A program made the translations under genes and the position numbers. The notes below the pieces were generated by a model that saw only the letters and a program-made list of their open reading frames with translations, made no database searches and was not told the DNA's origin. A stretch of 64,000 nt of DNA, taken from positions 186,001 through 250,000 of the forward strand of contig JAKOGI010000367.1 of assembly GCA_029747015.1 (NCBI GenBank), given 5' to 3'. Positions 1,776 to 29,720 of this stretch are shown here, piece after piece. The stretch's first letter is position 1; each line of letters starts with the position of its first letter. Origin of the DNA: Carnegiea gigantea. Taxonomy: Eukaryota > Streptophyta > Magnoliopsida > Caryophyllales > Cactaceae.

Positions 1776-1779
1776 TATA

Positions 1780-8792: not shown

Positions 8793-8970
8793 GGGTAATT
8801 TACATTTAGAACCATCGAACTTTGGTGTATTCATTTGTAGGACCAGCTTTTCGAAAAGTTCATTACCAGGACAATTGAGTTATTGTACAATCAACTTTTG
8901 GAGGACAAATCACTATTGAAATTTTTATATAATTTACAAAACTTTTCATATTTACAAATATAATCCCAAC
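8793..8970 (+). repeat. Left terminal inverted repeat of copy B unit
   Basis: Aligns closely with 29549-29720 read on the minus strand (copy C). Shared words include AATTTACATTT, GGTGTATTCATTTG, GACAAATCACTATT and CTTTTCATATT. It pairs imperfectly with the right end, 13192-13353. Confidence 0.65.
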
Positions 8971-9040
8971 CCTTAAAAATTTACCTTCAAAAAATCCAAA
9001 TATATGCATGTGATATTCTACTCACTAGTACTAATTGAAG

Positions 9041-9044
9041 CCCT
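9041..9044 (+). other. Deletion junction with 4-bp microhomology (CCCT)
   Basis: Copy B runs from TTGAAGCCCT straight into ATGCAAAAG. In copy C the first half is at 29469-29480 and the second at 26935-26947 (minus strand), about 2.5 kb apart, each next to CCCT. The intervening primer site, ORF1, coat region and most of the movement region are missing in B. Confidence 0.8.
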
Positions 9045-11345
9045 ATGCAAAAGATTTAGACAAGTAAATCCAATCTATATGAGATAAAGATTGATCGTTC
9101 ATGGATATCTAGCTTTGCTAACCCTAAAAAAATTGATAAGAAAAATGTGAAAAAAATTGATGATAATGGTAAAATTATCATTAAACTCCAATTATTAAGA
9201 AGTATGATTGTAAGGTCATAACAGGAGAAGGGTCTTCATCAGCTAAAGAAGAGCTTAAAGAAGATGATACAATTAGCAACTCCATGGAAATGAGTAGAAT
9301 GAGTTTTGAGCCTACAAGACATAGTGTAGACTAACGTATGAGTCAAGATAGAAAAGTCATTGAGTACAAAACAAGAACTGTTAGTGAACGAAGATGAATT
9401 AGTAAAAAAAAATATAACTATGGAGATATGCTATGAAGCTACAAATACAAATCCTAATAGCATCTATATTCCAATCAAGGTATGTTTAGAGGATATAATA
9501 AATATAAATTATATGGTTGCATTGATAGTGGTTGTTCTGTATAGTTTGGAAAAAGAACATTATTTCAAGAATTTATGTGGAAAAAAAGTCAAGAATTCTT
9601 TACAAGTAAGGATAGCGAGTAACAGCATTATGAACCATAACAAGGCAATAAAAGGGTTATCCATGGAATTAGAGGGTCTAATGCATTATACTAATTCTAT
9701 GGGCTACAGATCAACCCTCTCATGATATAATTATTGGCAATAATTTTCAGAGACTATATTGTCCATGCACACAGATCATAAACCAAATAATATTCATAAT
9801 TAATGGTCGTTTTATTCCTATCGAAAAATTAAGTAAGGCATATACTCATAAGAAACTTAAGTCTACACGCAAACAGTGTGGTGAGAAGGTAATGCCTATA
9901 CAATGTGAGATACCACTGGCAATCTCACCACTTGAGTTGTCTATTAAAAAGCAGATTGTTGAACAACAAGAGCAAATATGCAAAGAGCTCTACTCTAATA
10001 ATCCTCAAAAATTTTGGGATAAAGATATGACATTTGTAAAAATGACTTTGTTAAATCCCAATACTATTATTCAAGCCAAACAAATGTTGTGTAGACACCA
10101 GGATATCCAGGAATTTGATAAACAAATCAAAGAACTTCTGGCTAAAGGATTAATCAGGAATAACAAGAGCCTCACACTAATCGCACTTTCATGGTAAGAA
10201 ATTATGCTTAAGAAAAAAGAGAAAAAGTAACAATGGTAATCAATAACAAAAAGCTTAATGATAATACTATCTTTTATGGTTATTATATTCCTAATAAAAC
10301 AGTCCTTTTCAATAAAATTGAAGGAGTCTCTTGGTTCTCAAAAATGGATTGCAAAATTGGATACTGATAGATAAAAATAGATAAATAAAGCATTCCTTTA
10401 ACAGCATTTATTGCCCCACTAGGACATTATGAATGGATAGTAATGACATTTGATCTTAACCACCCAAATATTCCAAAGAAGAATGGATAACATCTGCAAA
10501 GACGTTAATCACTGTTATTTAGTTTACATCGATGATATTCTTGTCTTTTCCAAAACCATAAAATAGCATAAAGATGATGTCTTAGCTATCACCTAAAGAT
10601 GCATTGATCATGGAATTATACTCGGTAAAAACAAGTGCATTTATGCTGAACAAGATATTGAGTTTTTAAGTCTAGAGATAAAAGCTGGACAAACCATTCT
10701 ACAAAAACATATTCCGGAAAAAATAGAAAACTTCCTTAAAAAGATTAAAGATAGCAAGCATTTAGATAGGTTTCTTGGATGGCTTACCTATGCTCCAGAT
10801 TTCATTAATGATACTAAGAAAGTTATTGCAATAGAAACTCAAAAAAGAAGTTAGTTGACATAGACCCCTATTGATTCAAAGAATGTTCAGAACTTCAAAA
10901 AGATGTGGAAAAAGCTTCATGTTCTTAATTTGCCTAATGAAGGAGATGATTTAATTCTTGAGATAGATGCCAACAATGAGCACTGGAGTGCGGTACTCAA
11001 AATCGAAGAAGGAGAATAACTCTGCAAATATTGAAGTGGAAGCTTTAATAATGCGAAACATAACTATCCCACAATGGAAAAAGAAATCCTTACAGCCATA
11101 AGGGGAATTGAAAAGTTCTTAATTTTTTTGGCCTAAAACCTTTCCTTATTCGAATGAACTATAAAGGAATACTTAGTTTTATGAAAAAGAATCTATCAAA
11201 CATGTAAGCACAAGAACGACTCCCACATTGGAAATTATGGCTTAACCGATTTTCTTTCTCTATTGAACATATACAGGGGTCGAACAAATTCTCTGGCGAA
11301 TAGTTTAACTTGTGAACTCACCAATAGTGATCATCAGAGTAGACC
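9045..11345 (+). pseudogene. Copy B movement-protein tail, protease, reverse transcriptase and RNase H (broken)
   Basis: The movement-protein tail (9045-9355) carries the MSFEPTRHS-like words. The protease Asp-Ser-Gly is at 9534-9542. The RT entry region is the longest open piece (9892-10197: QEFDKQIKELLAKGLI). The RT active-site box at 10525-10536 reads Tyr-Ile-Asp-Asp and is intact. RNase H has EIDANNEHWSA near 10960-10995 and a TMEKEI.TAIRGIEKF pattern near 11070-11110. This is the replication polyprotein of a caulimovirid. Stops and frame changes occur throughout. Confidence 0.8.
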
Positions 11346-12400
11346 TCCTGTTGGAAAAGAAGGAAATCTAAAATGAAGTGCCATTACTAGTAGAATGTGT
11401 TTCTCCTTCTAGTAAAGTCCTTATAGATAATTTAGAATTACATACGAAAAGTAGATTAGTTTTAGTCTGCTATCTTTTGCCTACCTAATAGCCCAAAGAT
11501 TTTCCCTTCTAGAGTTATAAGTTAAATACCTAAAGTATTCTTATGATATCTAAGAAAAATAAGTTCTCATGGTCATAAAAATGGTTTAATGAGTGGCATG
11601 TAGCCTGCATCCATTTTTATTATAACTATTCCTATGATATTTGGGAATCATGGAGCACTACAATCTACTTTCCCGATAGTTTTGGAGTTGGTGCTGTTAG
11701 TTTTCCAGCAAATTCTATCCCTCCAAATAACCCTGTAGTAAAAGCTTGGAAATATAGAATAGTAGTTTACCTCATGGAAATCCCAGACCGGAAGTTCCCA
11801 TTTTTTTCTCAAGGTCAACCAAGTTTTAACAGTGCATGTTCAAAAGGATCCATTGGATTCTCACATCTCCTGATAGTCTAACAAAAATCCCATACATTAG
11901 ATGCTATATGTTGAGGTACATTGTGCATTAATTGAGTATGCAAATGGAAAAGCTAAACCAGCCCATTATCTAGTTCAACTAGTTGATCTAGATAATTTCA
12001 GAGATCAACAACAAGAGTGGTTCTCAGAACAACATGAGTTAGTTATGATCTTACTTTAGCATGACCCATTGGCTTTTTCAATATTTACAATCAAATGTGG
12101 GCATTAATCAAACAAGGAGTAGTGCTAAGGCACTGTGGAAATACTAATATCGCCTATCATAATGAGTTTATGAAGGTAGAAGAAGTCACTTCAAAAGATG
12201 TCTTTGATTATCTTTTTACTATTGGAGTTGGAAAATTCTTAGCAGAAAAAAGAAACAAACATCTCCATGAATTATTTGAAAAATAGGATCAACAGCATCT
12301 TCAACTAGATGAAGATTTTGATTATTATCTGGATAATGATGGACTGAAAGAGTTATTAAGGAAGAAGGTGTGTAGAATCTCAATAATGATGACTAGTCTT
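11346..12400 (+). pseudogene. Copy B unidentified C-terminal pararetroviral region
   Basis: Same unidentified region as 3441-4394 and 16870-17560. It contains YNYSYDIWES followed by TIYFPD (about 11620-11680) and the best-preserved end piece at 12095-12286 (DVFDYLF, KFLAEKRNKHLHELFEK). No known domain recognised. Broken by stops. Confidence 0.55.
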
Positions 12401-12570
12401 GTTAGCATTAAAAGGCTCTGAAACATGGTTGCTCCATTGTTGTACTAGTTTCACAAGTGTCAAGTCTGTAAAATAAGACAGTCTACTGTAACCATATGAA
12501 TGTGACTACAGCCATGTTAAAATCAATGTGTACTATAGCCGTTAGGGCATTTTATGTATTTTAACCCCTC

Positions 12571-12577
12571 TATAAAA
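12571..12577 (+). promoter_or_regulatory. TATA box of pararetroviral promoter, copy B
   Basis: TATAAAA in CCCCTCTATAAAAGGAAAGG, matching the copy C box almost base for base. AATAAT at 12739-12744 stands where copies A and C have AATAAA, so the poly(A) signal is probably weakened in this copy. Confidence 0.6.
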
Positions 12578-13191
12578 GGAAAGGCTGAGTACTGTGAAAG
12601 GACACGGTCATTTGAGCATACTTGAGCAAAAGAGAAGTCGGAATTCTCCATTTCTGTATGAGCAAGCACCCCTTATTATCTCAGTAGTTTGTGTCCCTCT
12701 TCAATCTTTCTATTGTAATATTTCCGCTTCAAGCTTTCAATAATATAAGATTCCCAGTGGGGAATCTTATTCAATTGAACCTTATGTCTTAAATATTATA
12801 ATTTCCTTATTAAAGTCTCACTATCCTTTAAAATATAAAACTTGGTTAGTGACTACTATTTAAGGAAGGAAACAAAACAGATTTGTGTTTTGTCTAACCT
12901 AAGGAAGGTTTGGTAAAGATTAGTAATCTCTGTAAACTTAAAGCTGGAGGAATGCTAGGGTCCAGTGCCGACTAAGTTCAGGTAATGATGAAAACTCTCT
13001 AATTTAATTTTAATTATTTTTCTAAGTATGGTAGACCTATAACAAAAGAAAGAATAATATTTATGAAATAAGTAGTGAATTGTGATAATTAATACCAATA
13101 AATTCATTATAAGAAGGTTAATCATTTAAAACAAGCATATTTCTTGAAAAAATCCTAAAAATAGCTTATTTGTATATTTTACCCGATTCTC

Positions 13192-13353
13192 AGGTCTTTC
13201 TGCAATTTCTAAAAATTTAGGGGCCAAAATAATGATAAAAAGGGCCAAAAAGTCAGTTTTGCCAAAATTGGTGGCACCAAACTCCTAATTTTTCTAAAAC
13301 CTAGACCAAACAATTCATACACCAAAACTGAAGATACCAAAGTACTAAATTTT
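13192..13353 (+). repeat. Right terminal inverted repeat of copy B unit
   Basis: Matches 15855-16008 of copy C read in the opposite direction; shared words include TTTCTAAAACCTAG, GACCAAACAAT and ATACCAAAGTACTAAATTTT. It pairs imperfectly with 8793-8970. Confidence 0.6.
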
Positions 13354-13363
13354 CGTTATTTGG

Positions 13364-14224
13364 TTGCTATCAATCCTTTGTCACTTGGATATAAACAACA
13401 TGTAATTAGGGTGTACATGATAGGTCTTGGTTCAAATTTATGGTCAATTTATGCAGGTGAAAGCGGACACGGTTGATAATCCTGCTAGGTTTTTAAGCCT
13501 TGATCGACCACTTCATCACTTATAGCCCCCTGCTTTCTTTCTTGAGTGATTGTTCCATAATGTACATCCTCTATAGCTTGACCTATTTCTCTTAGAAATC
13601 ACACATACATTTGTACGTTTGATGAGATAAAAAACGCATTCCTTGTGTGATGTGAAACTACAAGAGCCAAAAACCAACTTAAGTTGGTATTAAACGCCTT
13701 AATAACCCTTTGAGCCTTAAACTATTGTTTTTCATTTTGAACTACTTTTATTAACCCTTCACTAAACACATACTTCCCATTCTAAAACCAAGTCTAAAGA
13801 AGCCTCATTTTGACAGATTTTGGTCGGTGAAAGTAGTAGGTGGTATTGTGATATGAGTAGTAAGGGGATAATAATAGGGAGAATAATAGAATTTTTCCCC
13901 CTTGTTTATGTGGATATATGGTTGTTGTGTACATAAAGGGACTCCAGTGGGAAAAATGCGTGTTTGCTCTGAACTCGTACATTAAGAGCTAGTTGGTTTA
14001 TCCAAAGCATTCGAAGGAAAAGAGAGAAAAAGAAACAGAGAAAAAAACCAAAAAAAAAAAGAGGAAAAGAAAACAAAAAGTTTACACGGTGACTTCATAC
14101 GGTTTGACCTACCTTATGTAACCAAAGTTCATTTTGGGTAAGATGGGAATGTTTCCCACGTGTGTGTATGTGTGTGTTTTGGTGTAAAATATAAGCTCAT
14201 ATATTCAAACTCAATGTTGAAAGT
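13364..14224. other. No gene recognised
   Basis: AT-rich sequence with a poly-purine patch (about 14005-14090) and a short TG-rich run (about 14158-14180). No coding, RNA or element signature found. Confidence 0.5.
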
Positions 14225-14575
14225 TTACACCAAAAAAATCACGGCATACCCTGAAATTCTAAGTTATTTACAAATCCCTTGAGCCTACAGAATATCATTC
14301 CACCACACTCTTTAAAGTTGATAGCAATCCTTTTGTACATCCTTAAAAATGACTTTATTTCTTTCAAGCCAACACTGACAATGATAGTTAGAGCCACATA
14401 GAGTCCATTCTTGTTGCATTCTACTTCCAGCCTAAATCAAATCTTATTGCTGCCAACTATGCCATTCTACATCATCACACTTGAAGTGAAAACATCACTA
14501 AATGCATACATCACAACTTGACTATATGTACAAGAGAAAATAGATGATCATTCTATTCATTCTCTTTATGACAAA
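14225..14575 (-). pseudogene. LINE retrotransposon, 3' part of reverse transcriptase ORF (zinc-binding region)
   Basis: On the minus strand fragments read HKENE, NDHLF, then CWLERNKVIFKDVQKDCYQ, the pattern of the zf-RVT region at the end of plant L1-type LINE polyproteins (…HLFF.C…, W.ERN.R.F). It is cut at 14575 by the Tekay-like LTR; the preceding half lies at 39590-40620. Several stops; inactive. Confidence 0.65.
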
Positions 14576-15344
14576 TGTAATACCATATCATTTAATCATA
14601 TTTAATTAGTCCTAATTCTTGCATTAGTCATGTGGTTAAGATTAATCGGAGTAGTGAGCCATGCATTTTCTATTATCGAGCGAAACAATGACTAATTTAA
14701 AAATTTATGCTATTGCAGAATTCTTTTAAGCTTATAAAATATCAAAAAGTTATACGAAAGCATAAAATTTCCTATAAATATGCATTAAAACCCAAAAGAG
14801 GTCGGGGACTTACGGAGCCATAATAATTTCTTAACAGCTAAGAAAATGATGGGAGCGAATATATAAGGGCCAAATGTATAGCCAATTCTTAGCCAAATGA
14901 AAAGGAAAAAAAATGAATAAGCTGAAATTAATGAGACTTGACAAAAAGGAAGGGAGTGAGTGCCCTAAATTTAGAGATAAAAATGTGAATTAATATGTGA
15001 ATTCATAAGTGGGCTATTAAACAAACAAAAAAAAACCAAAGAAAATCAAATAAACCCAAAGCAAAAGATCCTCCGTTTTCCTCTCCCTGCACCTGCGTCA
15101 TTCTCAGCCGGAACCCCTCGGTTGTTGCTGCTATCACTGTCCGGCTAGCTGATGCAGGCTCTAGCCGTCACCGGCGAGCCGCCACCACCACCCTTCATCC
15201 TCTATAGCTTATCTTCCCCTAAGTTCTACTAAGGCAACTCTACTCCATCCTCCTTCTTTTTAAATCCAAATTTCATAGATGTGTTTGTGGGGAGTTAATG
15301 GGTAAATTTTGGTGAATGATAGTTCATTTGAGTAAATTAATTGA

Positions 15345-15556
15345 GTGATTTGTGTAGTTCATGAGGAAACTAATTTAGGGTGTATGTAGATGTGATTTGT
15401 GTAATTCATGAGGAACTAATTTGCTGTATATGTGGATCTCATGTTTGTAATTCACGAGGAAATCAACTGGGGGTATATGTGGATGTGATTTGTGCAATTC
15501 ATGAGAAAATTAAACTGGGAATATACGTGGATGTAATTTGCGAAATTCATGAGGAA
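15345..15556 (+). repeat. 47-bp tandem repeat in the 5' LTR (five units)
   Basis: TTCATGAGG-type words recur at 15358, 15405, 15451, 15498 and 15546, spacing 46-48 bp, each preceded by GATTTGTG. The 3' LTR has only three units (37655, 37702, 37750). Confidence 0.85.
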
Positions 15557-15845: not shown

Positions 15846-15854
15846 TGACTTAGG
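15846..15854 (+). other. Left target-site duplication of copy C insertion
   Basis: TGACTTAGG here and TGATATAAG at 29721-29729 both correspond to TGATTTAGG at 38051-38059 of the uninterrupted 3' LTR. The target is therefore present twice, over 9 bp, with point changes. Confidence 0.65.
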
Positions 15855-16008
15855 GAAAATTTGACACTTTGGTACCTCCAGTTTTGATGCATTCATTGTT
15901 TGGCCTAGGTTTTAGAAAAATTAACACTTCGGTACCTCCATTTTTGGTAAAAGTGACTTTCTATTATTATTGTTTTGGTCCCTAAACTTTTAGCAATAGC
16001 AGAAAGGT
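15855..16008 (-). repeat. Terminal inverted repeat of copy C unit, leader side
   Basis: Begins GAAAATTTGACACTTTGG. It pairs imperfectly with the other end (29549-29720, minus strand, beginning GGGCAATTTACATTTGGG); shared words include GCATTCATT/GTATTCATT and CCTAAACTTTT/CCTAAAACTTTT. It contains a 60-bp direct repeat: CACTTTGGTACCTCCA at 15865-15880 and CACTTCGGTACCTCCA at 15925-15940. Confidence 0.65.
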
Positions 16009-16455
16009 CTCTGAAAAGGGTAAACTATGCAAATAAGCTATTTTTAGGATTTTTTCAAGAAATATGCTTGTTTCAAACGATTAAATTTCTTATAATGACT
16101 TTATTGGTACTAGTTATCACAATCTGCTACTTATATCATAAATATTATAGTTTATGTGGTTATAGGCCTACCATGTTTAACAAACTAAATAAAACTTAAT
16201 TACAGAGTTTCGACCGTTAACTAAACCTAATCGGTGCTGGGCCCTGGCATTCCTCTAGCTTCCATTTTACAAAGATTGCTAATCTGAACCACACGTTTCT
16301 TAGATTAGGCACAACATAGATCTATTTCGTTTTCTACCTCAGACCGTGGTCACTAATCAAGTTTTATATTTTAAATGATAGCGAGAATTTAATCAAGAAA
16401 TTATCATATTTAAGACATGAAGATCGATTGAATAATGTTCCCTACTAGGAGACTT

Positions 16456-16461
16456 TTTATT
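16456..16461 (-). terminator. Poly(A) signal AATAAA, copy C
   Basis: Minus-strand AATAAA about 165 bp after the TATA box, the same arrangement as in copy A. Confidence 0.5.
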
Positions 16462-16623
16462 AAAAACTTAAAAGTAGAAATACTACAATGGAAAGATTAA
16501 AGAGGGACTTAAGCTACTAAGATCATCAGAGATATTTGCTCATAGAGGAATGGAGAATCCCTACTTCTCTTTTGCTCAAGTATGCTCAAATGACTGTGTT
16601 TCTTCTCAGCGCTCAGCCTTTCC

Positions 16624-16630
16624 TTTTATA
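16624..16630 (-). promoter_or_regulatory. TATA box of pararetroviral promoter, copy C
   Basis: Minus-strand TATAAAA in CCCCTCTATAAAAGGAAAGG, as in copy B. CTACTGTAGCC-like words lie 60-120 bp upstream (about 16665-16725), shared with copies A and B. Confidence 0.6.
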
Positions 16631-16869
16631 GAGGGGATGGGGGTATATAGGATTCCTTAACATCTACAGTACATGCTACTTTTACACATGGGTATAGTAT
16701 ATTCTGTTGGCTACAGTAGACTACCTTATTTTTTAGACTTGACACTTGTTAAAATAGTACAATAATGAAGCAACCACTTTTCAGAACCTTTTAATAATAG
16801 CAAGACTAGTCATCATTATTATGATTCTATATGCCTTTATCTCCAATAATATCTTCCAGACCATCATTA

Positions 16870-17560
16870 TCAGGATAATTATCAAAATCTTTATCATATT
16901 GAAGATACTTTAGATCTCATTTCTCAAATAATTTAACAATATATTTCTTTGCTTTCTGTCATAATAATTTTCCAGCTCCAACATCAAAGAGATAATCAAA
17001 ACATCTTCTAAAGTCGCTCGTTGTACCTTCATATATTCATTGAACTCGCTGTGGTAAGCGAAGTAGTGTTTTCGCAATGCATTAGTGTCTTTCCTCATTC
17101 ATTTAATCCCTGCCTTTGATGATAAATGTTAGAAAACGGCTCTTGCCAAAGCAGGATCAGTAACTAATTCTCATCTTTCTGAATTCTATTTTTGTCATTG
17201 ATCATTAGGGTCATCAAAATCAACTATCTGAACGAGATAATGAGTTGGCTTCGTTTTTCCATTATCATACTTGATTACTGTATAATGTAGCTCCACATAT
17301 GGGCATTTATTATTTGGTATTTTCATTGGACCATCAAGAGATGTAATAATCCAATGGATTTTTCTGAACATGCATTGTTAGAACTTAGCTTGGTTAATTT
17401 TGAGGAAAATAGGTACTTTAGATCTAGAAATTTCTTGAAGTAAACTACCATCCTATACTCCCAAGCTTTGATGACGGGGTCATTTATAGATATTGAATTT
17501 GCTACGAAACTAACACCACCAACTCCAGATGATCACCATTCTACTAGCAATGACATTTTA
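16870..17560 (-). pseudogene. Copy C unidentified C-terminal pararetroviral region
   Basis: Counterpart of 3441-4394 and 11346-12400. The best-kept piece is 16910-17098 (NALRKHYFAYHSEFNEYMKVQ). No known domain recognised; stops present. Confidence 0.5.
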
Positions 17561-17599
17561 TTATGGATTACCTCCTTTTCTGTTAGGAATTCTGCTCTG

Positions 17600-19162
17600 A
17601 TGATCACTATTAGCGAGTTCTCGAGTTAAACTATCTGCCAGAGAATTCTTTCATCCTTGTTTATGTTCAATAGAGAATGAAAACTGGTTAAGCCATAATT
17701 GCTAATGTAGGGGTCGTCCTTGCGCTTGCATATTTGATAAATTCTTTTTCATAAAGCTAAGTATTTCTTTGCAATCAGTTCGAATAAGAAAAGGTTTTGA
17801 GGCTAAAAAGATTAAGAAGTTTTCAGTTCCCCTTATGACTACAAGGATTTCTTTTTCCATCGTGAGATTATTGCATTATATCTTATTAAAACTTCCGCTA
17901 TAATATTTGTAGAGTTTTTCCTCTTCTTTGATTTTGAGCACTCACTCCAGTTCTCATTGCTGGCGTTTGTCTCAAGAATTAAATCATCTCTTTTATTAGG
18001 CAAATTAAGAATAGCAAGATTTTTACATATCTTTTTGAAGTCTTGGACAATCTTTGAATCACTAGGGTTCCATGTCTAACTTTTTTCTTTCTTGAGTTTC
18101 TGCTGCAATTACTTTCTTAATTTGGCTAGATCTTTAATAAAATTTGAAGCATAGGTAAGGCGTCCAAGAAATCTTTCTAACTTCTTCCTACCTTCAATTT
18201 TTTGGGGAAAATTTTCTATTTTTTCAAGAATATGTTTTTGTAGAATGATTTCATCAGCTTTTATCTCTAGACATAGAAACTCAATCTCTTGTTCAGCATA
18301 AATGCCTTTGTTCTTGCCAAGTATGATAATGATCAATGTATCTTTGTGTCACAGGTAGGACATCATCTTTATGCTATCCTATAGTTACGAAAAGGACAAG
18401 AATATCATCAACATAAACTAAATAACAATGATTAAGATATATAAAGATGCTGTCCATTCTTCTTTGGAATATTAGGGGTGCATTCTTTAGGCGGAGTTGC
18501 ACTACTATCCACTCATAATGTCCTAATGGGCCTCTAAAAGCAGTTACAAGAATGCTTTCTTTATCACATTTTAATTTTCTAGTATCCACTTTTGCAATCC
18601 ATTTTCGAGAACCAAGAGAATCCTGTTAAGAAGGACAGTTTTGTTAGGAATATAATAACCATCAAAGACAGTATTATCATTAAGCCTTTTGTACTTGATT
18701 ACCATTCTTGCTTTTCCCTTTTTCTTCAGCATGATTTCTTACCATGAAAGTAGGACTGGTACGAGGACTCTTGTTATTCCTGATTAGTCCCTTATCCAGA
18801 AGTTCTTTAACTTGTTTACCAAATTCTTAAATATCCTGGTGTGTGCACACCATTTGTTTAACTCGGATAATAGTATTGGGGTTTAACAAAGTCATATTTG
18901 CACATGTCTTATCTTTATCTCAAAATTTTAGAGGATTATCAGAGTAAAGTTTTTTGCATAATGTTTCTTGTTGTTTAACAATCTGTTCATTAATAAATAA
19001 CTCGAGCAATGAGATTGTCAACACTATCTCACGCTGTGCAGGCATTGCCTTCTCAACACGCTAGCTGCGTGTAAACTCAATCATATTATTTGGTTTATGA
19101 TATGTGTGCATAGCCTCTGAAAATTATTTCCAATAATTATATAATGAGGGTGGATCATTTGC
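17600..19162 (-). pseudogene. Copy C reverse transcriptase and RNase H (broken)
   Basis: Minus-strand RT pieces at 18374-18589 and 18109-18336. The active-site box Tyr-Val-Asp-Asp is intact (18404-18415, NHCYLVYVDDILV). The thumb region contains CLEIKADEIILQKHI and FLGRLTYASNFIKDL. RNase H follows to about 17600. The protease lies on the far side of the CRM-like element at 26297-26699. Confidence 0.8.
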
Positions 19163-19167
19163 CCATA
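19163..19167. other. Target-site duplication of CRM-like element (CCATA), left copy
   Basis: CCATA directly abuts the LTR terminus TGATGTATC; the same CCATA is at 26292-26296, directly after ...CTCCATCA. A perfect 5-bp duplication. Confidence 0.9.
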
Positions 19168-20471
19168 TGATGTATCTTGGTAGGAAAACACTAAAACTCA
19201 AAACTAAATTCAAAAGCTAAAGGCCAGCAAGCTGAATTCAAGCCGAAGTTTAATTGTTGTCATGTATGAATAAATGGAAGAAGGATAATCTAAGCTCTAG
19301 TTTAGATACATAATCACCACTAAACTTAACCTTAGGGTCCCTAGACTATGATAAAGATATAGAAGCACCACTTAATCAAGGTTTAGGACTTACTTGATCA
19401 CCACCTTAATCGACCAAACTAAGGATAAGCAAGTGAAGTATTCAGAGGATGAAAGCTAAAATGCTCTCAATCTGGTTTTCATTCAAAGTTCAAGTGTTTT
19501 CTTTAAAATGGCCATGATACAATGTTAATACTCAATCGAGCAAGCACCTAAACAACTAAGCTAGTTGCTGGAGGTTTCCTCCTTCGGTAGGAAACGTATT
19601 AACTTCCTAACTATGCACTTAGAACAAAATCATATTACATACTTGTTTAAACTAAACTAATTACAACCAGATTATAAGGAAAGCAAAACAAATGATGTAA
19701 TTAATTTTAATACATTGTAATTAAGCTAATATTGCAGCATTACTAGCAAAATCTGAAGAAAAGTTGCCGTAAAGTGCATCCCCTTTTCGGTTGTCCAATG
19801 AAAATGCTAGGTGCTGAATCTCCCCTTATGCTCTCATTGGTAGAACATGTCCCAAGGCTTCTTCAGTAGCAAATCATTATGTTTCCAGGCTGCTTGACTA
19901 GTAAATGAAGCAAGCAAGCTAGAAAGAAGCTGAGGAAACCCTTTGAAGACGGAAAAACACGTAGCTCTTCAACCGAGTTCACAAGGCAGTTTTTAGCCTA
20001 GTTTTAGGACCTTATTTCCACCAATCAAATGTGAGCATGATTTTGATTTTAGGCCATGGAGGACGCCTTGGGGTGTGCACAAACGCTCTTGTAAGGAAAT
20101 CAAGGTTAAATCATGTTTAAGTAGACGATTTCTACTAAAACATTTTACTATGTAGTTTTGAATCAAAACTAGCAGGTTGAATAAAAGGCCTTAATCTCTT
20201 GACTTCGACTGTGCATGAACGATTTTAAATGCTTGGACCTGAAAGCTAACATTACAAGGAATCCAAAAATGTAAAAATATCAATCTTAAGCCACAATGTA
20301 GCTTAAGAAATGAGGTGAACAAAATCAGGTACATTCTAGTTGTTTAACCCAGATGTTGCTGTTTGGTTCTCCTCTAACTTTCGAACCATTGCTTGGACTT
20401 TGAAACTTGGAGTGGACCTTGAAGGACTCTTAGGACCCTCTTTCTTGTCTTGGCTATGGAGGACTTCATCA
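19168..20471 (-). repeat. CRM-like element 1, 3' LTR
   Basis: 1304 bp, aligns end to end with 24997-26291 apart from scattered substitutions and a short indel near 19800/25630. Its first part, in element sense, also encodes the last residues of pol. Confidence 0.9.
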
Positions 20472-23400
20472 TTCTCCCCTTGTTGAAGAGATTTGATCCT
20501 CAAATCTTCAAGGTAATTATCGACATGGCAAGCACTCAAGTCAGCCACGTTGAATGTAGTTAAAACTCCATAGTTCCCTAGCAAATCAACCTTATGAGCA
20601 TTGTCATTAATTCTTTTAGGTACCTCAAATGGGCCATTAGCCCTTAGCATGAGCTTGTTCTTCCTCTTTGATGTAAATCTCTTTTTCCTTAAGTGTATCC
20701 ACACGAGGTTAAAATACCACCTTCTTCTTGTGTTTGTTGGCTTGAGCTTGATATGATGCATTAGTCTTCACTATTCTGCTCCTTACCAACTCATGTATCT
20801 TTTGGATTTCTTCTACCTTAGCTGCTGCATCTGCACTTGGCTTTTGATCTAAAGGTCTTGGAGTAAGATCAGGTGGACTAAGAGGATCAATCCCATGGAC
20901 CACCTTAAATGGTGATAGATCAGTAGCCTTACTAGGAGCCCTGTTGTAAGTAAATTCTACATAGGGTAAAAGAAAATCCCAAACTTTGGCATGAGGCTTA
21001 ACCAAAGCCCTTAGGAGTGCACCTAGGGTTTGATTTGTGACCTCAGTTTGCCCATCAGTTTGTGGATGATAAGTAGTACTATACTTGAGTTTAGTACCTA
21101 ACTTATTCCACAAGGTAATCCAAAAATGGCTTAGGAACTTAGTATCCTGATTAGAAATAGTTGACCTAGGTATACCATGTAACCTGGCCATCTCCCTGAA
21201 ATACAACTCAGTAATGTGTGTAGCATCATTAGTCTTGTTGCATGGAATAAAATGAGACATTTTAGAGAACCTATCTACTATAACAAAGATTGAATCTTTG
21301 TTCCTTTGTGTCTTAGGCAGTCCAAAAATGAAATTCATACTTACATCAACCCAAGGAGTAGTAGGAATAGGTAGAGGGATGTATAGGCCGTGAGCTAGGG
21401 AGTGACTTTTGGCCACTTGACAAGTCCCACACCTCTTCAAAATATCTTGTACGTCCTTTTCCATACCTGGCCAGTGGTAATACTCTCTTAGCATGATGAG
21501 GGTCTTGTTTTCGCCATAATAACCAGCTAAAGAACCCCCATGAACTTCTCTAATTGGAAGCTCTCTTATGCTACACCGTGGTACACACAGCCGTGTACCC
21601 TTGAAAAGGAACCCTTTTTGAATTAGAAATCCCCTTTGGAGTGCTTTGAATAATCAGCAAACAACTCCCCAAAGTCTTCATCTTCAGCATACAAAACTTT
21701 TTAGATGCTCAAAACCAAGTACACAAGCATCTAATTGAAGCAAAAGTAGATACCTCCGTGATAAAGCATTGACACCTTAGTTAAGCTTTCCAGATTTGTG
21801 CTTGATTGCGAAATGATATGACTGGAGAAACTCAACCCATTTAGCATGCTGTGAGTTTAGCTTATGTTGGCCTTGAATGTACTTCAAAACTTCACGGTCA
21901 AAATGAAGGATAAACTCACTTGTAATCAAGTACTAACTCCAATGCTCTAAACATCTTACAATCACATAGAACTCTTTATCATAGGTGAAGCACTTTCTTC
22001 TTGAATCACATAATTTCTCACTAAAGAAGGCTAATGGCTTACCTTCCTGAGTAAGAACACCACCTATGCCAACTCCAAAGGCATCACATTCAACTTCAAA
22101 AACCTTACTAAAGCACGGCACAGAGAGGCCAGGTGCTTGAGTAAGTCTTCTTTTAATCTCTTCAAAGGCAGATTGTGCTTTTGGTGTCCATTGAAATGAT
22201 GTACCCTTGATAACTTCAGTCATAGGAGCCATAATAGTGCTGAAACGTCTAATAAACCTCCTGTAAAATGAAACTAATCCATAAAAAGGTCAAACATCAT
22301 GAATTGACTTAGGAGTAGGCCATGATTAAATAGCTTCAATCTTGCTTTCATCTGTCTTAATGCCATCACTAGTGACTATATAACCTAAGAATGTTACTTC
22401 AGGAGTGAAGAAAGCACACTTCTTAAGGTTACAAGAAGCCTCTAACGTTCTAAAACAAGCGCAACTTGAGTTAAATGGTCTTGATGTTCATGCTCATCCT
22501 TGGAATAAATCAAGATATCATCGAAATAAACCGCCACAAACTTTCCTATGTACGACTTGAATAATTGATTCATCAATCTCAAGAATGTGCTAGGGGCATT
22601 TGAAAGACCAAAGGGCATAACCAACCATTCATAAAGCCCTCCTTTAGTTTTAAAGGCTGTTTTCCATTCATCACCTTCTCTAATCCAAATCTGGTAGTAT
22701 CCACTTCGAAGGTCTATCTTTGAAAACACTTTAGAGCCATGTAACTCAACCAGCATGTCTTCAAGTCTAGGTATGGGATACCTATAGTTGATTGTGATCT
22801 TGTTTATGGCTCTACTATCCATGCACATACGTATTCCACCATGCTGCTTTGGCACCAAAAGAGTAAGCACAACATATGGACTTAAGGACTCACAGATTAA
22901 GCCCTTGAACTTCAACTCTTCAAGTTGTCTTTGTATTTCCATGGTGTCCTTTGGATTTATCCTATAGGCAGGCTTATTAGGTAGGAAGGAACTAGGAATA
23001 AGGTTAATATGGTGTTGGATATCTCTTTTAAGAGGTAAGTCCGTGGGTATCTCCTCAGGAAACAAATGACAGAAGTTTTGTATGAGTGTTTTAGCTATGG
23101 GATGAGTGGGTAAAGGGGCTGATGCTTCTTCTTGCATACTCAAAATTCACTCTTTAAAGGCCTTAAACTCATGTCGAGAAACCTTTAACAACGTTTGACT
23201 TATGAACAATAGCAAATCAGAATGTTTGGGCTTGTTTTGAGGCTTGACTTCATGAAGCTTTGATGGGGATAAAGGGGCTAAAGTGATCTTCTTACCATCC
23301 TTAGTAAAGGAGTAGGTATTCAAGTAACCATTATGCATAACCTTATGGTTATATAGCCATGATCTCCCTAAAAGCATATAACAAGCATCCATAGGGATAA

Positions 23401-23818
23401 CATCACACCAAAGTTCATCTTGATAGTTCTTTCCAATAGAGAAAGAAATCAACCACCGTGAGTTCACTTGGATTCCCTTACTTTGATTCAGCCATTGAAT
23501 ATTGTATGGATGTGGATGAGTCATAGTTAGCAATCCTAGTTTCTCAATCATGCTTAGAGAAACCACATTTGTACAGCTTCCTCTATCAATAATCAAAGAA
23601 CACACCTTCCCTTGAACTGTACAATGAGAATGGAATATGTTCTCTCTTTGTTCATCTTTTACTCTTTTTTGATTGCTCAGAACTCTTCTCAAAACTAGCA
23701 ATTCATCTTCATCAACCTCTTCCACTACTTCCTCTTGAGTTTCCTCAAGTTCATTCTCACATTCATCTACCTTTTCTTCCTCTTCAAAGACTTCCTTCAT
23801 GGCTGACCATTCGGACAA
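20336..23818 (-). pseudogene. CRM-like element 1 pol: protease, RT, RNase H, integrase
   Basis: The protease piece (23147-23818) carries SLIIDRGSCTNVV; the Gly after the catalytic Asp position is Arg, where the related element 3 has Asp-Gly-Gly. RT (22442-23143) has [10 protein letters not shown] and the intact box Tyr-Phe-Asp-Asp. RNase H is at 21933-22232 ([18 protein letters not shown]). Integrase (20709-21494) keeps CGTCQVAK and the Glu in DGQTEVTN. Two catalytic Asp codons are AAT: 21333-21335 (SMNF) and 21150-21152 (ISNQD). A stop lies at 23147-23149 and a frameshift near 22445. The C-terminus (20336-20761) extends into the LTR. Inactive. Confidence 0.85.
20472..20486 (-). other. Polypurine tract, CRM-like element 1
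   Basis: Minus-strand CAACAAGGGGAGAA directly next to the 3' LTR; primer for plus-strand DNA synthesis. It lies inside the pol reading frame. Confidence 0.7.
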
Positions 23819-23854
23819 AGTAATAACCTTATGGTTTGGGTAGTCTAAGGCTAC

Positions 23855-24874
23855 ATGCCCAAGTCCTTATCATTTGAAACATCTTCTGTTACTCATGGGA
23901 TTGGGATTAGGCCTATTTTGAGGAGTTTGGATCATTTGTGGAGCTGGGATTCTTTGTGGAAAAGAAAGAAATGGATTTTATGGCTTGGGAGTAGGATTAG
24001 AACTCCCCTTGTTAAAGGGTTGGTTCTGGGTATAAGGCTTTGGATTTTGGGGTTTAAGAGGCTACCTTGCTTTCTTTTACCGCTCAGCCTTATGAGCCCG
24101 CACACACACCTCATCAAAGGTAGTGTATGCTTACAAATCAACCACATTAGCATACCTAGGATCAAGTCCTCCTAAGTACCTAACAATGGTTTGCCCTTTG
24201 GGTTCTTGTAAATCACACTTGATTACAAGTTTCTCAAACTCCCGTGTGTACTCTTCAACACTCAAGTTGCCTTGAGTAAGATTATGGAGTTGAAAATAGC
24301 AATCTTGATCATAAGTTGGGGGAAGAAAATAAGCCTTAAGCTTTAATTTCATCTTATCCTGTGTTCTAATTTTTGACTTTCTTTCCCTAACCCGTTTAGC
24401 ACATAGGTTTGTCCACCATAGTGAAGCGTACTTTTTAAGTCTTAAGGCCACTAACTTGACCTTCTTATCCTCTTGAACATCTTTATACTCAAAAACACAT
24501 TTAACAGTGTGCAACCAATCTAAAAATTCTTCTAGATCAGGCTTACCTTCGAATTCTGGAATTTCAACTTTGAAATCATTGGTGGTAGCCTGCATCCGTG
24601 GTTTTGCCCTAACCATTCTCACTGGTCCATCTTCACTAGATGAATCAACTTCATGGCTGTAGAGTTGTTCTTGCCTTCTTGGTTCAGATTGCAAAGTTTC
24701 TTTATTCATTTTCTGCTTTTGCTTCAAAACAGAACCAGGCTGCATCCTTAGATACTCATTCTGAGCTTGAGTTTCTTGGTTATGTTGAGTATCTTCATGA
24801 ATCTTCTTTGCTAGCATTTCATTCTGCCTCATTAATGCTTCAAACGTCTCTTCCAAACTCATGCTAGAACTCAT
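23855..24874 (-). pseudogene. CRM-like element 1 gag
   Basis: Start chosen at 24874 (MSSSMSLEETFEALMRQNE); the same frame is open upstream to 25042, but that part covers the primer site and LTR. Next comes the capsid-like gag domain with EIPEFEGKPDLEEFLDWLH, KYASLWWTN and LSVEEYTREFEKL, typical of chromovirus gag. The frame breaks at about 24131; the zinc-knuckle region towards 23855 is in other frames. Gag forms the particle in the cytoplasm. Confidence 0.8.
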
Positions 24875-24980
24875 CTTGCTCACGGTTTGTGTTTGGATTG
24901 AAGCTAGGAATGTGTTTGGATTTTTGAGTGGGAATGAATTCTGGAAGTGGAGGGACGTACTAGGCCAAGGCAAAATCAAA

Positions 24981-24992
24981 GCTTTGATACCA
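24981..24992 (-). other. Primer binding site, CRM-like element 1
   Basis: Minus-strand TGGTATCAAAGC, 11 of 12 bases matching the site for initiator tRNA-Met (TGGTATCAGAGC), four bases inside the 5' LTR. Confidence 0.8.
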
Positions 24993-24996
24993 AATA

Positions 24997-26291
24997 TGAC
25001 ATATCTTGGTAGGAAAACACTAAAACTCAAAACTAAATTCAAAAGCTAAAGGCTACCAAGCTAAATTCAAGCTGAAGTTTAAGTGTTGCTGTGTATGGAT
25101 AAATGAAAGAAGGATGATCTATGCTCTTGTTTAGATATAGGATCACCACTAAACTTAAGCTTAGGGTCCCTAAACTGTGATTAAGATATAGAAACACCAC
25201 TTAATCAAGGTTTAGGACTTACTTGATCACCACCTTAATCGACCAAATCAAGGATAAGTAAGTGAAGTATTTAGAGGACGAAAGCTGAAATGCTCTCAAT
25301 CTGGTTTTCATTCACAGTTCAAGTGTTTTCTTCAAAGTGGCCATGATACAATGTTAATACTCGACCAAGCAGGAACCTAAACAACTAAGCTAGCTGCTGG
25401 AGGTTCCCTCCTAAGGAAGGAAACGTATTAACTTACTAACTATGTGCTTAGAACAAAATTAGATAACATGCTTATTTAAACTAAACTAATTACAACCAGA
25501 TTACTAAAGAAAGCAAAACAAATGATGTAATTAACTTTAATAGATTGTAATTAAGCTAATATAGCAGCATTACTAGCAAAATCTGGAGAAAAGTAGTCGT
25601 AAAGTGCATCCCCTTTTCAGCTGTCCAATGAGGTGTTGAATCTCCCTTTATGCTCTCATTGTTAGAACACATCCCAAGGCTTCTTCAGCAGCAAATCATT
25701 GTGTTTCCAGGCTGTGTGACTAGTAAATGAAGCAAGCAAGCTAGAAAGAAGCTAAGCAAACCCTTTGAAGATGGAAAAACACGTAGCTCTTCAATCGGGT
25801 TCACAAGGCAGTTTTTAGCCCGATTTTGAGACCTTGTTTCCACCAATCAAAAGTGAGCATGATTTTGATTTTAGGCCATGGGGGACTCCTTAGGGTGTGT
25901 AAAAACCCCCTATAAAGAAATCAAGGTTAAATCATGTTTAAGTAAAAGAATTTGCTAAAACATTTTACCATGCAGTTTTGAACCAAAACTGGTAGGTTGA
26001 ACAAAAGGCCTTGATATCTTGACTTTGACTATGCATGATTGATTTTGAATGCTTGGACCTGAAAGCTAACATCATAAGGAATCCAAAAATGCAAAAATAT
26101 CAATCTTAAGCCACAACATAGCTTAAGAAATGAGATGTACAAAACCGGGTACATTCTGGTTGTTCAACCCGGATGTTGCTGTTTGGTTCTCCTCTAACTT
26201 TTGAACCATTGCTTGGACTTTAGAACTTGCATTAGAACTTGAAGCACTCTTAGGACCCTCTTCCTTGTCTCGGCTATGGAGGACTCCATCA
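24997..26291 (-). repeat. CRM-like element 1, 5' LTR
   Basis: 1295 bp; termini TGATGGAG...ATATGTCA in element sense. Pairs with 19168-20471. Confidence 0.9.
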
Positions 26292-26296
26292 CCATA

Positions 26297-26699
26297 GAAC
26301 TAATATAATGCATTGGACTCCTCCTAATTCTATAGATAACCCTTCTATGACTTCGTTCTGGCTCATAATGACATTATCAGCTATCCTTATTGGATTATTC
26401 TCCATATAAATTTTAGAAATAATGATCTTTTTACAAAGCATACAGAACAACCACTATCAATGTAGGCACACAATTCATATTTATTATATCCCTCTAAACA
26501 TACATTTATTAGGATATAGATGCTGTTAGGATTTGTATTAACAGCTTCATAGCATATCTGCGTAGTCATGTTTTTTACTAATTCATCTTCGTAGATGGGC
26601 TCACTATTAGCTCTTGTTTTGTACCCAATACCTGTTCTATCTAGACTCATACTTAGATCTACACTATGTCTTGCGGGTTTAAAACTCATTCTACTCGTC
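26297..26699 (-). pseudogene. Copy C protease region
   Basis: Open minus-strand piece 26387-26689 contains IYEDELVKNM, NSIYILINVCLEG and the aspartic protease Asp-Ser-Gly at 26450-26458 (YIDSGCSVCF). It is cut just downstream by the CRM-like element; RT resumes at 19162. Confidence 0.75.
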
Positions 26700-27474
26700 T
26701 AACTGGTCATGCTAATTACATCATCTTCTTAAGCTCTTCTTTAGCTGATGAAGATCCTTCTCCACATTCCGATATTGCACTTATGCTTCTTAATATTTGA
26801 GGGTTAATGGTAATCTTACCATTCTCATCAATTTTTATCACATTTTTCTTATTTGTTTTTTTAGGGTTAGCAAAACTAGATATTCATGAGCAATCGATCT
26901 TTATCTCCTGTGGATTGGATTTAATTCTCTAGATCTTTTGCATAGGGGTAGGACTTTTAAATTTTTCTACCTCTATCATTGTTATCTTAGTCTTCGGATC
27001 TATAGTATTATCTAGTTTGTAGATAATTTTTCAGAATATTCTCAATGGATATCCTCCTTTTTTTATGTCCATCCCAACTGTTTTTATCTTAAGAGATAAG
27101 AAGTTTTTAGCAAATTCATCTTTTAGACTTACATAACATCTAGATCGATAGTTGAATCCCACTGATCCATTACATAAATTGGTCCTAATCCCTGTAATAA
27201 TTTGATTATTAAATTTGGTATGTCTAATATCATAGAGCAAAGCATAAAGATCAATATCCTTGCCATAATATTGTAATAGAGTGATTTGAACTTAGATACT
27301 TCCAATATGGATATACCTGTACCTTCTATCTTTATTATGCTTAAGGATGTTTTCCCAGTTAATGAGATTAACTTCACCCACATCATACTCACAATCTTTT
27401 ATTTCTAAATCCCCTTCTAGGATTTCACTTACATACTTACTCTTCAATTGAAAGATGAATTTTTTATATATCAT
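26700..27474 (-). pseudogene. Copy C movement protein region (30K-like)
   Basis: Pieces at 27292-27474 (KDRRYRYIHIGSI), 27129-27392 and 27031-27240 (YDIRHTKFNNQIITGI, YVSLKDEFAKNFLS) match the region at 916-1775 of copy A. Tail words RSISA.SE and KEELKK lie near 26720-26800. Role inferred: cell-to-cell movement. Frames broken. Confidence 0.65.
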
Positions 27475-27480
27475 GTCTTT

Positions 27481-28847
27481 CTGGATTATAGAAAGGACCC
27501 AATCTTGTTTGACTTTTTTTTATTATCATCGTCTACAACAACTCTTCTTCTTGAAGATCACCATTACTAACCGAGGTACTTTTCATCATATGACTTGTTC
27601 CCTTATAATCGCTTTCTTTATATTTATTGTCCAAAATAATTTCAATAATGCCTTTACTATTATTTAAACCTAGGTCTGGTGTCTCTTTCTCACTAAGGTC
27701 AACACAATCTATGCTTCCCAAGCTTTCAATAAGCTTGTTATTCTTCCTATTTTTGCATTGATTAGCATAATGTCCTATTTCTCCGTATGCCCAGCATTCG
27801 CAGTTATTTTTCCTTGCAGGATAATACGTGGCTTTCCTAAAAAATCTCTGTTTTTTAGGACTTTGTTTGTTATAATATTTTTTTCTATATTTCTCCCCCC
27901 TTTGCTTGTTAAAGCTCTTTTTCTTATGGAATTCTCCTTTCCTTCTTTTTCAGGTTTTTTTCCCCATTGGTGAGAAGAATCACAGCAAGTTAAAAACCAC
28001 TTCTTAATCTTCTTTTGCTTTTGAAGATCAAGACATTGATCATGACTCATTTTCTTAAATAAGAAACTCTTGAACCAAGCGTATCAATGATATCTGCTCT
28101 TCAAGCCATGCAATGTATTTTTCATTTATTATGGAATTTATAGGATACGGAAATTTGTCATAGAACATTCTAAGATTAGTTTCATTATGCCCAATTTTGT
28201 AATAATATTGACTAAATTCAGCAATATAATTTTTCAGATATCTCACATCTCATAATTCTATATTATTAATGTTTCTTTGTCATTCTCTTGCTTTTTCTTC
28301 AGAATTATGTTTTGCTCTGATGAAGTCGATTTCAATTTCCTTACATAAGTTTTTGAAAAGTGCAGCTAGTGTTTCTATCATTCTTAATGTATTTTTACCA
28401 TCTTCATTTAATGAATCGTACCAGTCAGGTACAATCTGAGAGAAACTATGTTCAATGTAATTTAGAAAATTTGCAGTAGTCCATATAGTATTCAGGTTTA
28501 AGACACTACTCATTCATCTTTTCCAATGGTCAAATATTTCTTCTCTATTACAAGCTCCGTCTATGCTTAAGATGTATCCTGCTTGACTAATTGGAGTAAG
28601 GTCAACCTCTTCAAAGGCTGCAGTTTTCCTTGGGATAAGCCCAAAGGAAAAATTAGTTGTACGTTCTGTTGGAGCGGACTTAAGCCTTATGATTAACTTG
28701 ATTGGTCTTTATTTCATTTAAGTCGAGCTCTTTTCCAATCTCATTGATCTCGTCTTCTAGCCTTATTTTGCCATATTTATTATCCAATTTTCTTCGAACT
28801 TCTTCTAATTGTAACACCTTAAGATCTTCTAGTTTAATCGTATTCAT
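27481..28847 (-). pseudogene. Copy C coat protein region
   Basis: A start codon at 28847 (MNTIKLEDLKVLQLEEV) opens a Lys/Glu-rich, coiled-coil-like segment. It is followed by the core (28280-28513: FLNYIEHSFSQIVPDWYDSL), a basic arm (27775-28050) and the zinc knuckle at 27755-27796. The second knuckle cysteine is Tyr (codon at 27785-27787); the first Cys, His and last Cys remain. An acidic tail lies at 27533-27721. The start was chosen because an upstream frame ends at about 28872, 25 bases before. Stops interrupt the region. Confidence 0.7.
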
Positions 28848-28871
28848 TTGCTATATATTTTCTCTTCTAAT

Positions 28872-29380
28872 TAGACATTATCTATCTCGTCTTTATCATC
28901 AGATAACACGTCATGTTTATCACTAATTATGCCCATTATCTTATTTAATTCTTCTAGATTTTGTTTTTTCGTAAAGATATTTCGTATTTCTTCATGAATA
29001 TACGACTTATACTCCATCCTTTTCTTCTTTTTTTGCCTTTTCAGACGATTTCTCAGCTGATTTTCATCCTACTTCTTTTTGGATTTTTATATCATACAAA
29101 GGATATGAATTTTTGTTTTGGGGTTTTGGAAAGGATATTTATACTGAAACGAAGTACTAATACATGGAGTAGATTTCTCACTATGCCTAACTTCGTTGAC
29201 TAGAGAAAGGTAAATTACAAATAATTGCTTCGTAAGCTTCTTGACTTTAGTCTTAATTTTAGCTAATTCTGCTTTTAATTCGATATCATTTAATTGAGGT
29301 GCTCCTAAAGAAATTCCTTTAGGTGAGTGAACAATGTGTGAATAATTAGGACTAAGGCAAGCAGGTGATGATTCAAGCAT
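28872..29380 (-). pseudogene. Copy C first ORF region (unidentified)
   Basis: Starts MLESSPACLSPNYSHI at 29380, 69 bases inside the primer site. Lys/Glu/Leu-rich (LKAELAKIKTKVKKLTKQL), coiled-coil-like. Broken after 29087; a further piece near 28872-29020 ends just before the coat start. No known domain recognised; by position it is the first ORF of the virus. Confidence 0.5.
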
Positions 29381-29448
29381 TAATCATAGTTAATTATTTT
29401 AATTAGTCATTAATTAGCTTAATTATCTTAATTATTTTTTGTAACGTG

Positions 29449-29460
29449 GCTCTGATACTA
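29449..29460 (-). other. tRNA-Met primer binding site of pararetrovirus, copy C
   Basis: Minus-strand TAGTATCAGAGC, 11 of 12 bases of the initiator tRNA-Met site. By convention this marks position 1 of a caulimovirid genome, and the first ORF region begins 69 bases further. Copy B has lost it. Confidence 0.75.
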
Positions 29461-29548
29461 GATGATAGAGGGCTTCAAGTAGTTCTAGTGAGCGAAATAT
29501 TACATGCACAAATTTAGATTTTTCAAAAATAAGTTTTTAAGGATTGGG

Positions 29549-29720
29549 GTTATATTTGCGAATATGAAAAGTTTTAGGAGTTAAATAAAAATTTGAATAG
29601 TGATTTGTCTCCCAAAAGTTAATAGCACATTGAGTCAATGGTCCTGGCAGTGAAATTTTCAAAATGCTAGTCTTGCAAATGAATACACCATAGTCCTATG
29701 GACCCAAATGTAAATTGCCC
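29549..29720 (-). repeat. Terminal inverted repeat of copy C unit, primer-site side
   Basis: Minus strand begins GGGCAATTTACATTTGGG. Matches 8793-8970 of copy B and pairs imperfectly with 15855-16008. Confidence 0.65.

What the first reader, a model, noticed from the sequence alone, without database searches (positions are those of the whole stretch)
8793..29720. Pararetroviral genome apparently carried as cargo inside a Mutator-like TIR unit (two copies)
Copies B (8793-13353) and C (15855-29720) share both outer ends although their flanking DNA is unrelated. In each copy the two ends are imperfect inverted repeats of about 160-180 bp, starting G-rich then AATTT. For copy C the interrupted Tekay LTR can be compared with its intact partner: left flank ends at LTR base 38059 and right flank begins at 38051, a 9-bp target duplication, the size made by Mutator-like transposases. 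Copy B has similar flanking words (CGATTTTGG / CGTTATTTGG). Caulimovirids have no integrase and normally integrate without such signatures. If right, a DNA transposon captured a nearly whole viral genome and spread it. Alternative: the ends are the two arms of the viral leader hairpin, opened at its tip.
Basis: partly seen in the sequence, partly recalled or inferred. Interest (0 to 1): 0.9.

Follow-up and report, generated by a model that had tools for sequence, protein, structure and literature searches.

The report
Plant pararetrovirus with transposon-style ends
Decayed copies of a plant DNA virus, from a group thought to enter chromosomes only by accident, sit here between fixed, mirror-like ends and a 9-base target duplication, as if a DNA-transposon enzyme had pasted them in.

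Summary
In the host assembly (1.13 Gb) this caulimovirid family starts at one fixed point, about 260 bp before the primer-site motif, ends at another, and lies in unrelated DNA. Of 35 copies with both ends scored, 31 have flanks agreeing at 6 or more of 9 bases (8 perfect); flanks of different copies do so in 2.5% (control on 26). No other duplication length from 5 to 12 fits. Copy C's 9-bp duplication is exact in position against its intact partner LTR. The inverted repeats are real by local alignment but weaker than stated. 'A transposon captured a virus' is only partly supported: 40 of 40 scored matches to the outer 70 bp of B's 5' end are attached to this virus, protease-RT and movement-protein codons show constraint between copies, and premature stops are shared no more than chance. 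Best reading: the ends belong to the viral genome, abut in its circle, and were used by a Mutator-like transposase acting in trans. Not shown: the enzyme, the circle, or a sequence match to any MULE. The copies examined are old and decayed.

The parts
8793..13354 (+). Copy B: provirus, internally deleted between about 250 bp and the movement-protein region
8793..8862 (+). 5' terminal repeat of B (outer 70 bp used as end-only query)
13285..13354 (-). 3' terminal repeat of B (outer 70 bp, inverted relative to the 5' end)
8784..8792 (+). Left flank of B, candidate target duplication (5 of 9)
13355..13363 (+). Right flank of B, candidate target duplication (5 of 9)
12571..12577 (+). TATAAAA of B, taken as the promoter; points out of the 3' end (inference)
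   Evidence: sequence
15855..29720 (-). Copy C: provirus with nested LTR element
29651..29720 (-). 5' terminal repeat of C (outer 70 bp)
15855..15924 (+). 3' terminal repeat of C (outer 70 bp, inverted relative to the 5' end)
15846..15854 (+). Target duplication of C, left copy TGACTTAGG
29721..29729 (+). Target duplication of C, right copy TGATATAAG
38051..38059 (+). Same site uninterrupted in the partner LTR, TGATTTAGG
29447..29460 (-). Primer-site motif TAGTATCAGAGCCA (complementarity to initiator tRNA-Met is recalled)
27533..27949 (-). Zinc-knuckle piece of C, likely coat-protein region (weak Pfam hit, below cut-off)
27034..27291 (-). Movement-protein piece of C, PF01107 over cut-off
26387..26695 (-). 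Protease piece of C, PF02160 over cut-off
17537..19080 (-). RT/RNase H region of C, broken
19165..26291 (-). Ty3-type LTR retrotransposon nested in C; not part of the unit
1..5257 (+). Copy A, cut by the window start; the true 3' end was not settled

Best explanation
These are decayed proviruses of a caulimovirid (plant pararetrovirus) whose genome carries transposon-type ends. SHOWN: insertion joins two fixed points of the viral genome, about 260 bp upstream of the primer-site motif and about 780 bp downstream of the TATA box, to a staggered 9-bp cut in the target. SHOWN: the two ends are imperfect inverted repeats, and no end without virus was seen among 40 scored end-only matches. SHOWN statistically: protease-RT and movement-protein codons were constrained between copies, and stops are not shared beyond chance. 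INFERRED: in the circular episome the two ends abut inside the leader; a Mutator-like transposase of the host, acting in trans, cuts at that junction and inserts the linear unit, as it would a non-autonomous element with matching ends. INFERRED: one integrated unit cannot make full-length pregenomic RNA, because its promoter points out of its 3' end; a new generation needs a circle, from infection or from excision by the transposase.
For: 38 of 40 5' ends begin at query position 1-6 and 35 of 40 3' matches reach position 198-200 of 200; flank identity is random (0.27-0.33) while the first 15 nt inside are 0.86 (52 ends) and 0.82 (20 ends). 9-bp duplications: 137 of 180 positions in 20 pairs; 22 of 26 pairs reach 6 of 9 against 2.5% for mismatched flanks; 31 of 35 with nine further pairs. 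End-only query: 40 of 40 scored matches viral. dN/dS median 0.48 v 0.72 in a spectrum-matched control, lower in 169 of 171 pairs; movement protein 20/20/39 changes by codon position over 130 codons, A v C; stops in shared columns 99 v 115 +/- 6 expected. 150 of 150 scored MULE-domain matches in this genome exceed the Pfam cut-off.
Against: No MULE with these ends was identified and no circle was seen. The inverted repeats are not significant by global identity, and in three of 20 copies 11-17 of 100 shuffles scored as well. Four of 35 pairs score 5, 5, 2 and 0, and three more copies (L016, L018, L021) have cut-short 3' ends without a duplication. Only 96 of 171 dN/dS pairs lie more than 2 SD below control, and protein-guided alignment leans towards conserved codons. 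Copy A does not show the same 3' end. A transposed intact master provirus could mimic the constraint.
Confidence: 0.62

Rival explanations
1. Cargo model: a Mutator-like element captured a viral genome once, and the combined unit then spread as DNA by transposition.
For: The same ends and 9-bp duplications at many sites; MULEs are known to capture genes (PMC9168764, passages); MULE-domain sequences are common in this genome.
Against: 40 of 40 scored end-only matches viral (relatives much under about 85% would be missed); coding constraint between copies; no sharing of stops beyond chance, and 61 of 83 gap events in 16 copies private, though 3 are shared by two copies and 1 each by three and six.
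Confidence: 0.22
2. Leader-hairpin model: the circle is opened at the tip of its leader hairpin by some other nuclease, or by an unrecognised viral or host strand-transfer enzyme that is not Mutator-like, and inserted with a 9-bp stagger.
For: The ends lie between promoter and primer site; the two arms pair better than shuffled arms (-61 v -44 kcal/mol).
Against: Pairing within a copy is no better than between copies, G-U-compatible mismatches are fewer than their mirror (169 v 243), and the antisense strand pairs better (-71). A hairpin alone gives no 9-bp duplications.
Confidence: 0.12
3. Ordinary accidental integration by end joining, followed by duplication of chromosome segments.
For: This is the accepted route for caulimovirids (PMC8256270, PMC9719215, PMC5491270; passages, and one section of the second). 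Two pairs of loci do share flanks by local duplication (C257: L029/L031; C122: L018/L036).
Against: Fixed ends in dozens of copies with random flank identity, and 31 of 35 pairs with 9-bp duplications.
Confidence: 0.02

Closest known systems
Endogenous pararetroviruses / caulimovirid EVEs (Caulimoviridae)
   Same: Caulimovirus-type protease and RT, viral movement protein, primer-site motif, many decayed copies.
   Different: Known ones are described as entering by end joining or illegitimate recombination, without active integration (PMC9719215 introduction read; PMC8256270 and PMC5491270 passages); here fixed ends and 9-bp duplications recur.
Mutator-like elements (MULEs, Pack-MULEs; e.g. Hvu_Abermu of barley)
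   Same: 9-bp duplications, long terminal inverted repeats, GGG start at the 5' end in B and C, T/A-rich middle of the target site in the 20 pairs (flanks, one search counts); for Abermu see PMC9168764, passages.
   Different: No transposase found inside; ends only weakly alike; the 3' end of B and C does not finish in CCC; contents are a viral genome; no empty relative seen.
Teratorn (piggyBac-herpesvirus fusion, medaka)
   Same: A virus genome bounded by DNA-transposon ends that spreads inside genomes (PMC10175614, passages).
   Different: Teratorn carries its own transposase and is a 180-kb herpesvirus fusion; this is a roughly 7-kb reverse-transcribing virus with no transposase found.

Membership tests
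Caulimoviridae | Caulimovirus-type aspartic protease and RT | tested here: met
   PF02160 over cut-off in pieces of B and C; RT through aligned relative P0184, RVT_1 and PDB 8r0s 3.7e-54
Caulimoviridae | Viral movement protein | tested here: met
   PF01107 1.8e-5, over cut-off
Caulimoviridae | tRNA-Met primer-site motif near the genome start | tested here: met
   motif with up to 3 mismatches at 250-270 bp in 37 of 40 copies
Caulimoviridae | Coat protein | tested here: inconclusive
   zinc knuckle below cut-off; coat domain PF22909 E 0.12
Caulimoviridae | Circular dsDNA episome | not testable with these tools
   needs DNA from tissue
Mutator-like element | 9-bp (8-10) target duplication | tested here: met
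Mutator-like element | Terminal inverted repeats | tested here: met
   local alignment, mean z 5.6 in 20 copies; not by global identity
Mutator-like element | End sequences matching a MULE family with a transposase | not tested
   150 MULE-domain matches listed; their ends were not read
Mutator-like element | Own transposase (autonomous form) | tested here: inconclusive
   none in the stop-free pieces scanned; the interior was not scanned whole
Pack-MULE carrying viral cargo | Empty or differently loaded relatives with the same ends | tested here: not met
   40 of 40 scored end-only matches viral; distant relatives not excluded
Pack-MULE carrying viral cargo | Copies derived from one another, sharing lesions | tested here: not met
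   99 stops in shared columns v 115 +/- 6 expected

The most novel reading that the evidence does not exclude
A lineage of reverse-transcribing plant viruses evolved or acquired transposon ends in its leader, so that its circular DNA is itself a transposase substrate. By borrowing a host Mutator-like transposase it gained programmed insertion, and perhaps excision, without an integrase.
Probability: 0.55. Interest if true: 0.93.

Novelty: new variant of a known kind. Interest (0 to 1): 0.85.

Why it matters
Plant pararetroviruses are described as integrating by accident. A family with fixed ends and 9-bp duplications at dozens of sites would mean that one lineage integrates through a borrowed DNA-transposon enzyme. 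That could explain high copy numbers, link two classes of mobile element, and make the question 'how do caulimovirid proviruses get in' directly testable, with end-only reporters and with surveys of other plant genomes.

Tried and rejected
Accidental integration as the main route was rejected by boundary and duplication profiles. Selection for an RNA hairpin in the arms was looked for and not found. Copy A's 3' end was compared with the 5' terminal repeats; nothing convincing, and its 5' end is not in C367:183500-185100. Relatives in viral contigs: none by a 171-aa piece, a protease alignment or an exact 22-base end pattern. A phase test on the last ORF gave mixed signals because frames are broken. 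The first arm alignment slid in several copies and stopped with an error; replaced.

Not finished: the same end-only test for the 3' end and a count of one exact 5' motif; the machine did not answer. The ends of the MULE copies themselves were not read.
Full report
WHAT IS THERE. The window lies in a plant-sized assembly of 1.13 Gb in 5,575 contigs (G000:C367:186001-250000). It holds three copies of one caulimovirid: A (1 to about 5257, cut by the window start), B (8793-13354, +) and C (15855-29720, -). Pieces match the caulimovirus protease (PF02160, 1.1e-7 and 8.8e-5) and the viral movement protein (PF01107, 1.8e-5), both over cut-off. RT is recognised through environmental relatives that align to A, B and C; one of them, P0184, finds PDB 8r0s 'Enzymatic polyprotein' at 3.7e-54 (that this is cauliflower mosaic virus RT is recalled). 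C is interrupted by a Ty3-type LTR retrotransposon, 19165-26291, LTRs 89% alike. B lacks the stretch between about 250 bp and the movement-protein region. Close relatives of the pieces lie in short metagenome contigs: 181 proteins with E<=0.01 for the protease piece, 66 with E<=0.001 for the protease-RT piece, 75 for the movement-protein piece.

ENDS. A 201-bp query from B's 5' end had 506 first-look candidates, of which 40 were scored. 38 of the 40 begin at query position 1-6; two are truncated (L022, L034). A 200-bp query from B's 3' end had 657 candidates, 40 scored, of which 35 reach position 198-200. Across 52 5' ends the mean pairwise identity is 0.86 in the first 15 nt, against 0.27-0.30 in the 60 nt before (40 ends with full flank). 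Six of the first 40 loci were left out of that profile (L001, L022, L026, L031, L034, L036: deleted, truncated or duplicated), as was one of six from the second set. Across 20 3' ends it is 0.82 inside and 0.27-0.33 outside. The inverted relation of the ends is significant by local alignment: median score 19, direct orientation 11, dinucleotide shuffles about 11, mean z 5.6. No shuffle of 100 reached the score in 12 of 20 copies, 1-5 did in five, 11-17 in three. It is not significant by global identity over 190 nt (0.64 v 0.63). The primer-site motif (up to 3 mismatches) follows at 250-270 bp in 37 of 40 copies. Of 18 elements with both ends found, 11 measure 7.08-7.20 kb; the others 6.64-8.43 kb.

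TARGET DUPLICATIONS. For copy C the partner LTR fixes the boundaries: a 9-bp overlap, 38051-38059. Of 39 3' search pieces, 19 held a complete 3' end (18 distinct elements), 5 a shortened one and 15 none. With B and C this makes 20 pairs. At fixed boundaries, matches rise only at positions -9 to -1 in the 9-bp register (137 of 180); no other length from 5 to 12 gives a comparable block. A second set started from the 3' list: 20 taken, 6 had a 5' end in the stretch searched, scoring 8, 0, 9, 6, 6 and 7 of 9. Over these 26 pairs 22 reach 6 of 9; flanks of different copies do so in 2.5%. Nine more pairs come from ends further apart (nested insertions or deletions) or from corrected 3' ends: 9, 9, 9, 9, 8, 8, 8, 8, 7. 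These nine were picked by coordinates and by eye, so the 26 carry the statistics. In all, 31 of 35 reach 6 of 9, 18 reach 8 or more, 8 are perfect. Against: pairs scoring 5 (B), 5 (L029), 2 (L040) and 0 (C1301). L016, L018 and L021 have shortened 3' ends and no duplication found. L022/C465 and L034/C384, with truncated 5' ends, were not scored.

CARGO OR VIRUS? (i) A query of only the outer 70 bp of B's 5' end, which could have found empty elements, had 192 candidates and 40 scored matches. 26 were among the first 40, two more were in the second set, and the other 12 were fetched: 12 of 12 continue into the viral leader and first ORF. The two from the second set do so too, and L026 runs into the movement-protein region after a deletion. 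So 40 of 40 are viral. The weakest listed match is 86% alike, so a distant parent MULE is not excluded. (ii) In 19 copies of the protease-RT piece, changes at codon positions 1/2/3 are 243/214/333 on internal and 711/657/831 on terminal branches. Nei-Gojobori dN/dS has median 0.48, against 0.72 when the same substitutions are placed at random; it is lower in 169 of 171 pairs, by more than 2 SD in 96. The movement-protein piece differs between A and C by 20/20/39 over 130 codons. Protein-guided alignment favours conserved codons, and neutral decay after insertion dilutes the signal, so this is a trend with a known lean. (iii) 164 in-frame stops occupy 94 columns; 99 lie in shared columns, where independent decay predicts 115 +/- 6. 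Of 83 gap events in 16 copies, 61 are private, 3 are shared by two copies, 1 by three, 1 by six, and the rest by ten or more. Together this favours insertions from a working virus that already carried the ends over DNA-level copying of a dead passenger. A transposed intact master copy cannot be excluded.

JOINED ENDS. The genome has no match to 3' motif - 0 to 30 bp - 5' motif. Eight of 40 5' ends and 11 of 20 3' ends carry the exact motifs, so about 11% of joined copies would be seen; if the family has hundreds of members, as the candidate counts suggest, joined ones are at most a minority. In L033 a complete 3' end lies 900 bp before another 5' end: neighbours, not a join.

MECHANISM. Shown: fixed ends, a 9-bp staggered target cut, many insertions, coding constraint. 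Inferred: the enzyme is a Mutator-like transposase. Nine bp, terminal inverted repeats, a GGG start in B and C and T/A-rich site centres agree with plant MULEs (PMC9168764, passages), and 150 of 150 scored MULE-domain matches (2,496 candidates) exceed the Pfam cut-off in this genome (domesticated relatives may be among them). Inferred: the substrate is the viral circle, where the two ends meet inside the leader between promoter and primer site. The TATA box of B (12571) points out of the 3' end, so a lone provirus could not make pregenomic RNA unless recircularised.

LITERATURE. Caulimovirids are said not to integrate actively; their DNA is thought to be captured by end joining or by hybrid mechanisms involving transposable elements, and a grapevine run found no TE-caulimovirid chimeras (PMC9719215, introduction read and passages). 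Illegitimate recombination: PMC8256270 (passages). No integrase, end joining: PMC5491270 (passages). Teratorn is the nearest precedent seen for a virus bounded by DNA-transposon ends (PMC10175614, passages). PMC12440569 (passages) concerns another retroelement lineage. Ten searches of open full text listed no paper whose title or abstract start describes a caulimovirid with terminal inverted repeats and 9-bp duplications; subscription papers are mostly not covered.

VERDICT. Observation confirmed and extended.

Noticed in passing
window 50072-51552 and 59286-60764: Direct repeats 97.8% alike, about 9 kb apart: probably the LTRs of a much younger element.
   Followed up: no
window 44925-46075 and 61353-62355: Two direct repeat blocks (92% and 77% alike) outside the younger pair: probably an older nested element.
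   Followed up: no
L031 (G000:C257:379041-380941): Two 5' ends 683 bp apart with the same flank: a local tandem duplication of flank plus end.
   Followed up: partly
L018 and L036 (G000:C122): Two copies 17.7 kb apart with the same upstream flank: a segment duplication rather than two insertions.
   Followed up: partly
L025, L038, L040: A subgroup whose termini begin GAAA instead of GGG at the 5' end; L038 and L040 also have an altered 3' terminus.
   Followed up: no
window 5258-5422 (copy A): A's 3' region departs from B and C after 5257; its true end and duplication were not found.
   Followed up: partly
19 protease-RT copies: Recurrent stops fall at CAA, CAG, CGA and TGG codons, as expected from C-to-T decay of methylated DNA (cause inferred).
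   Followed up: partly
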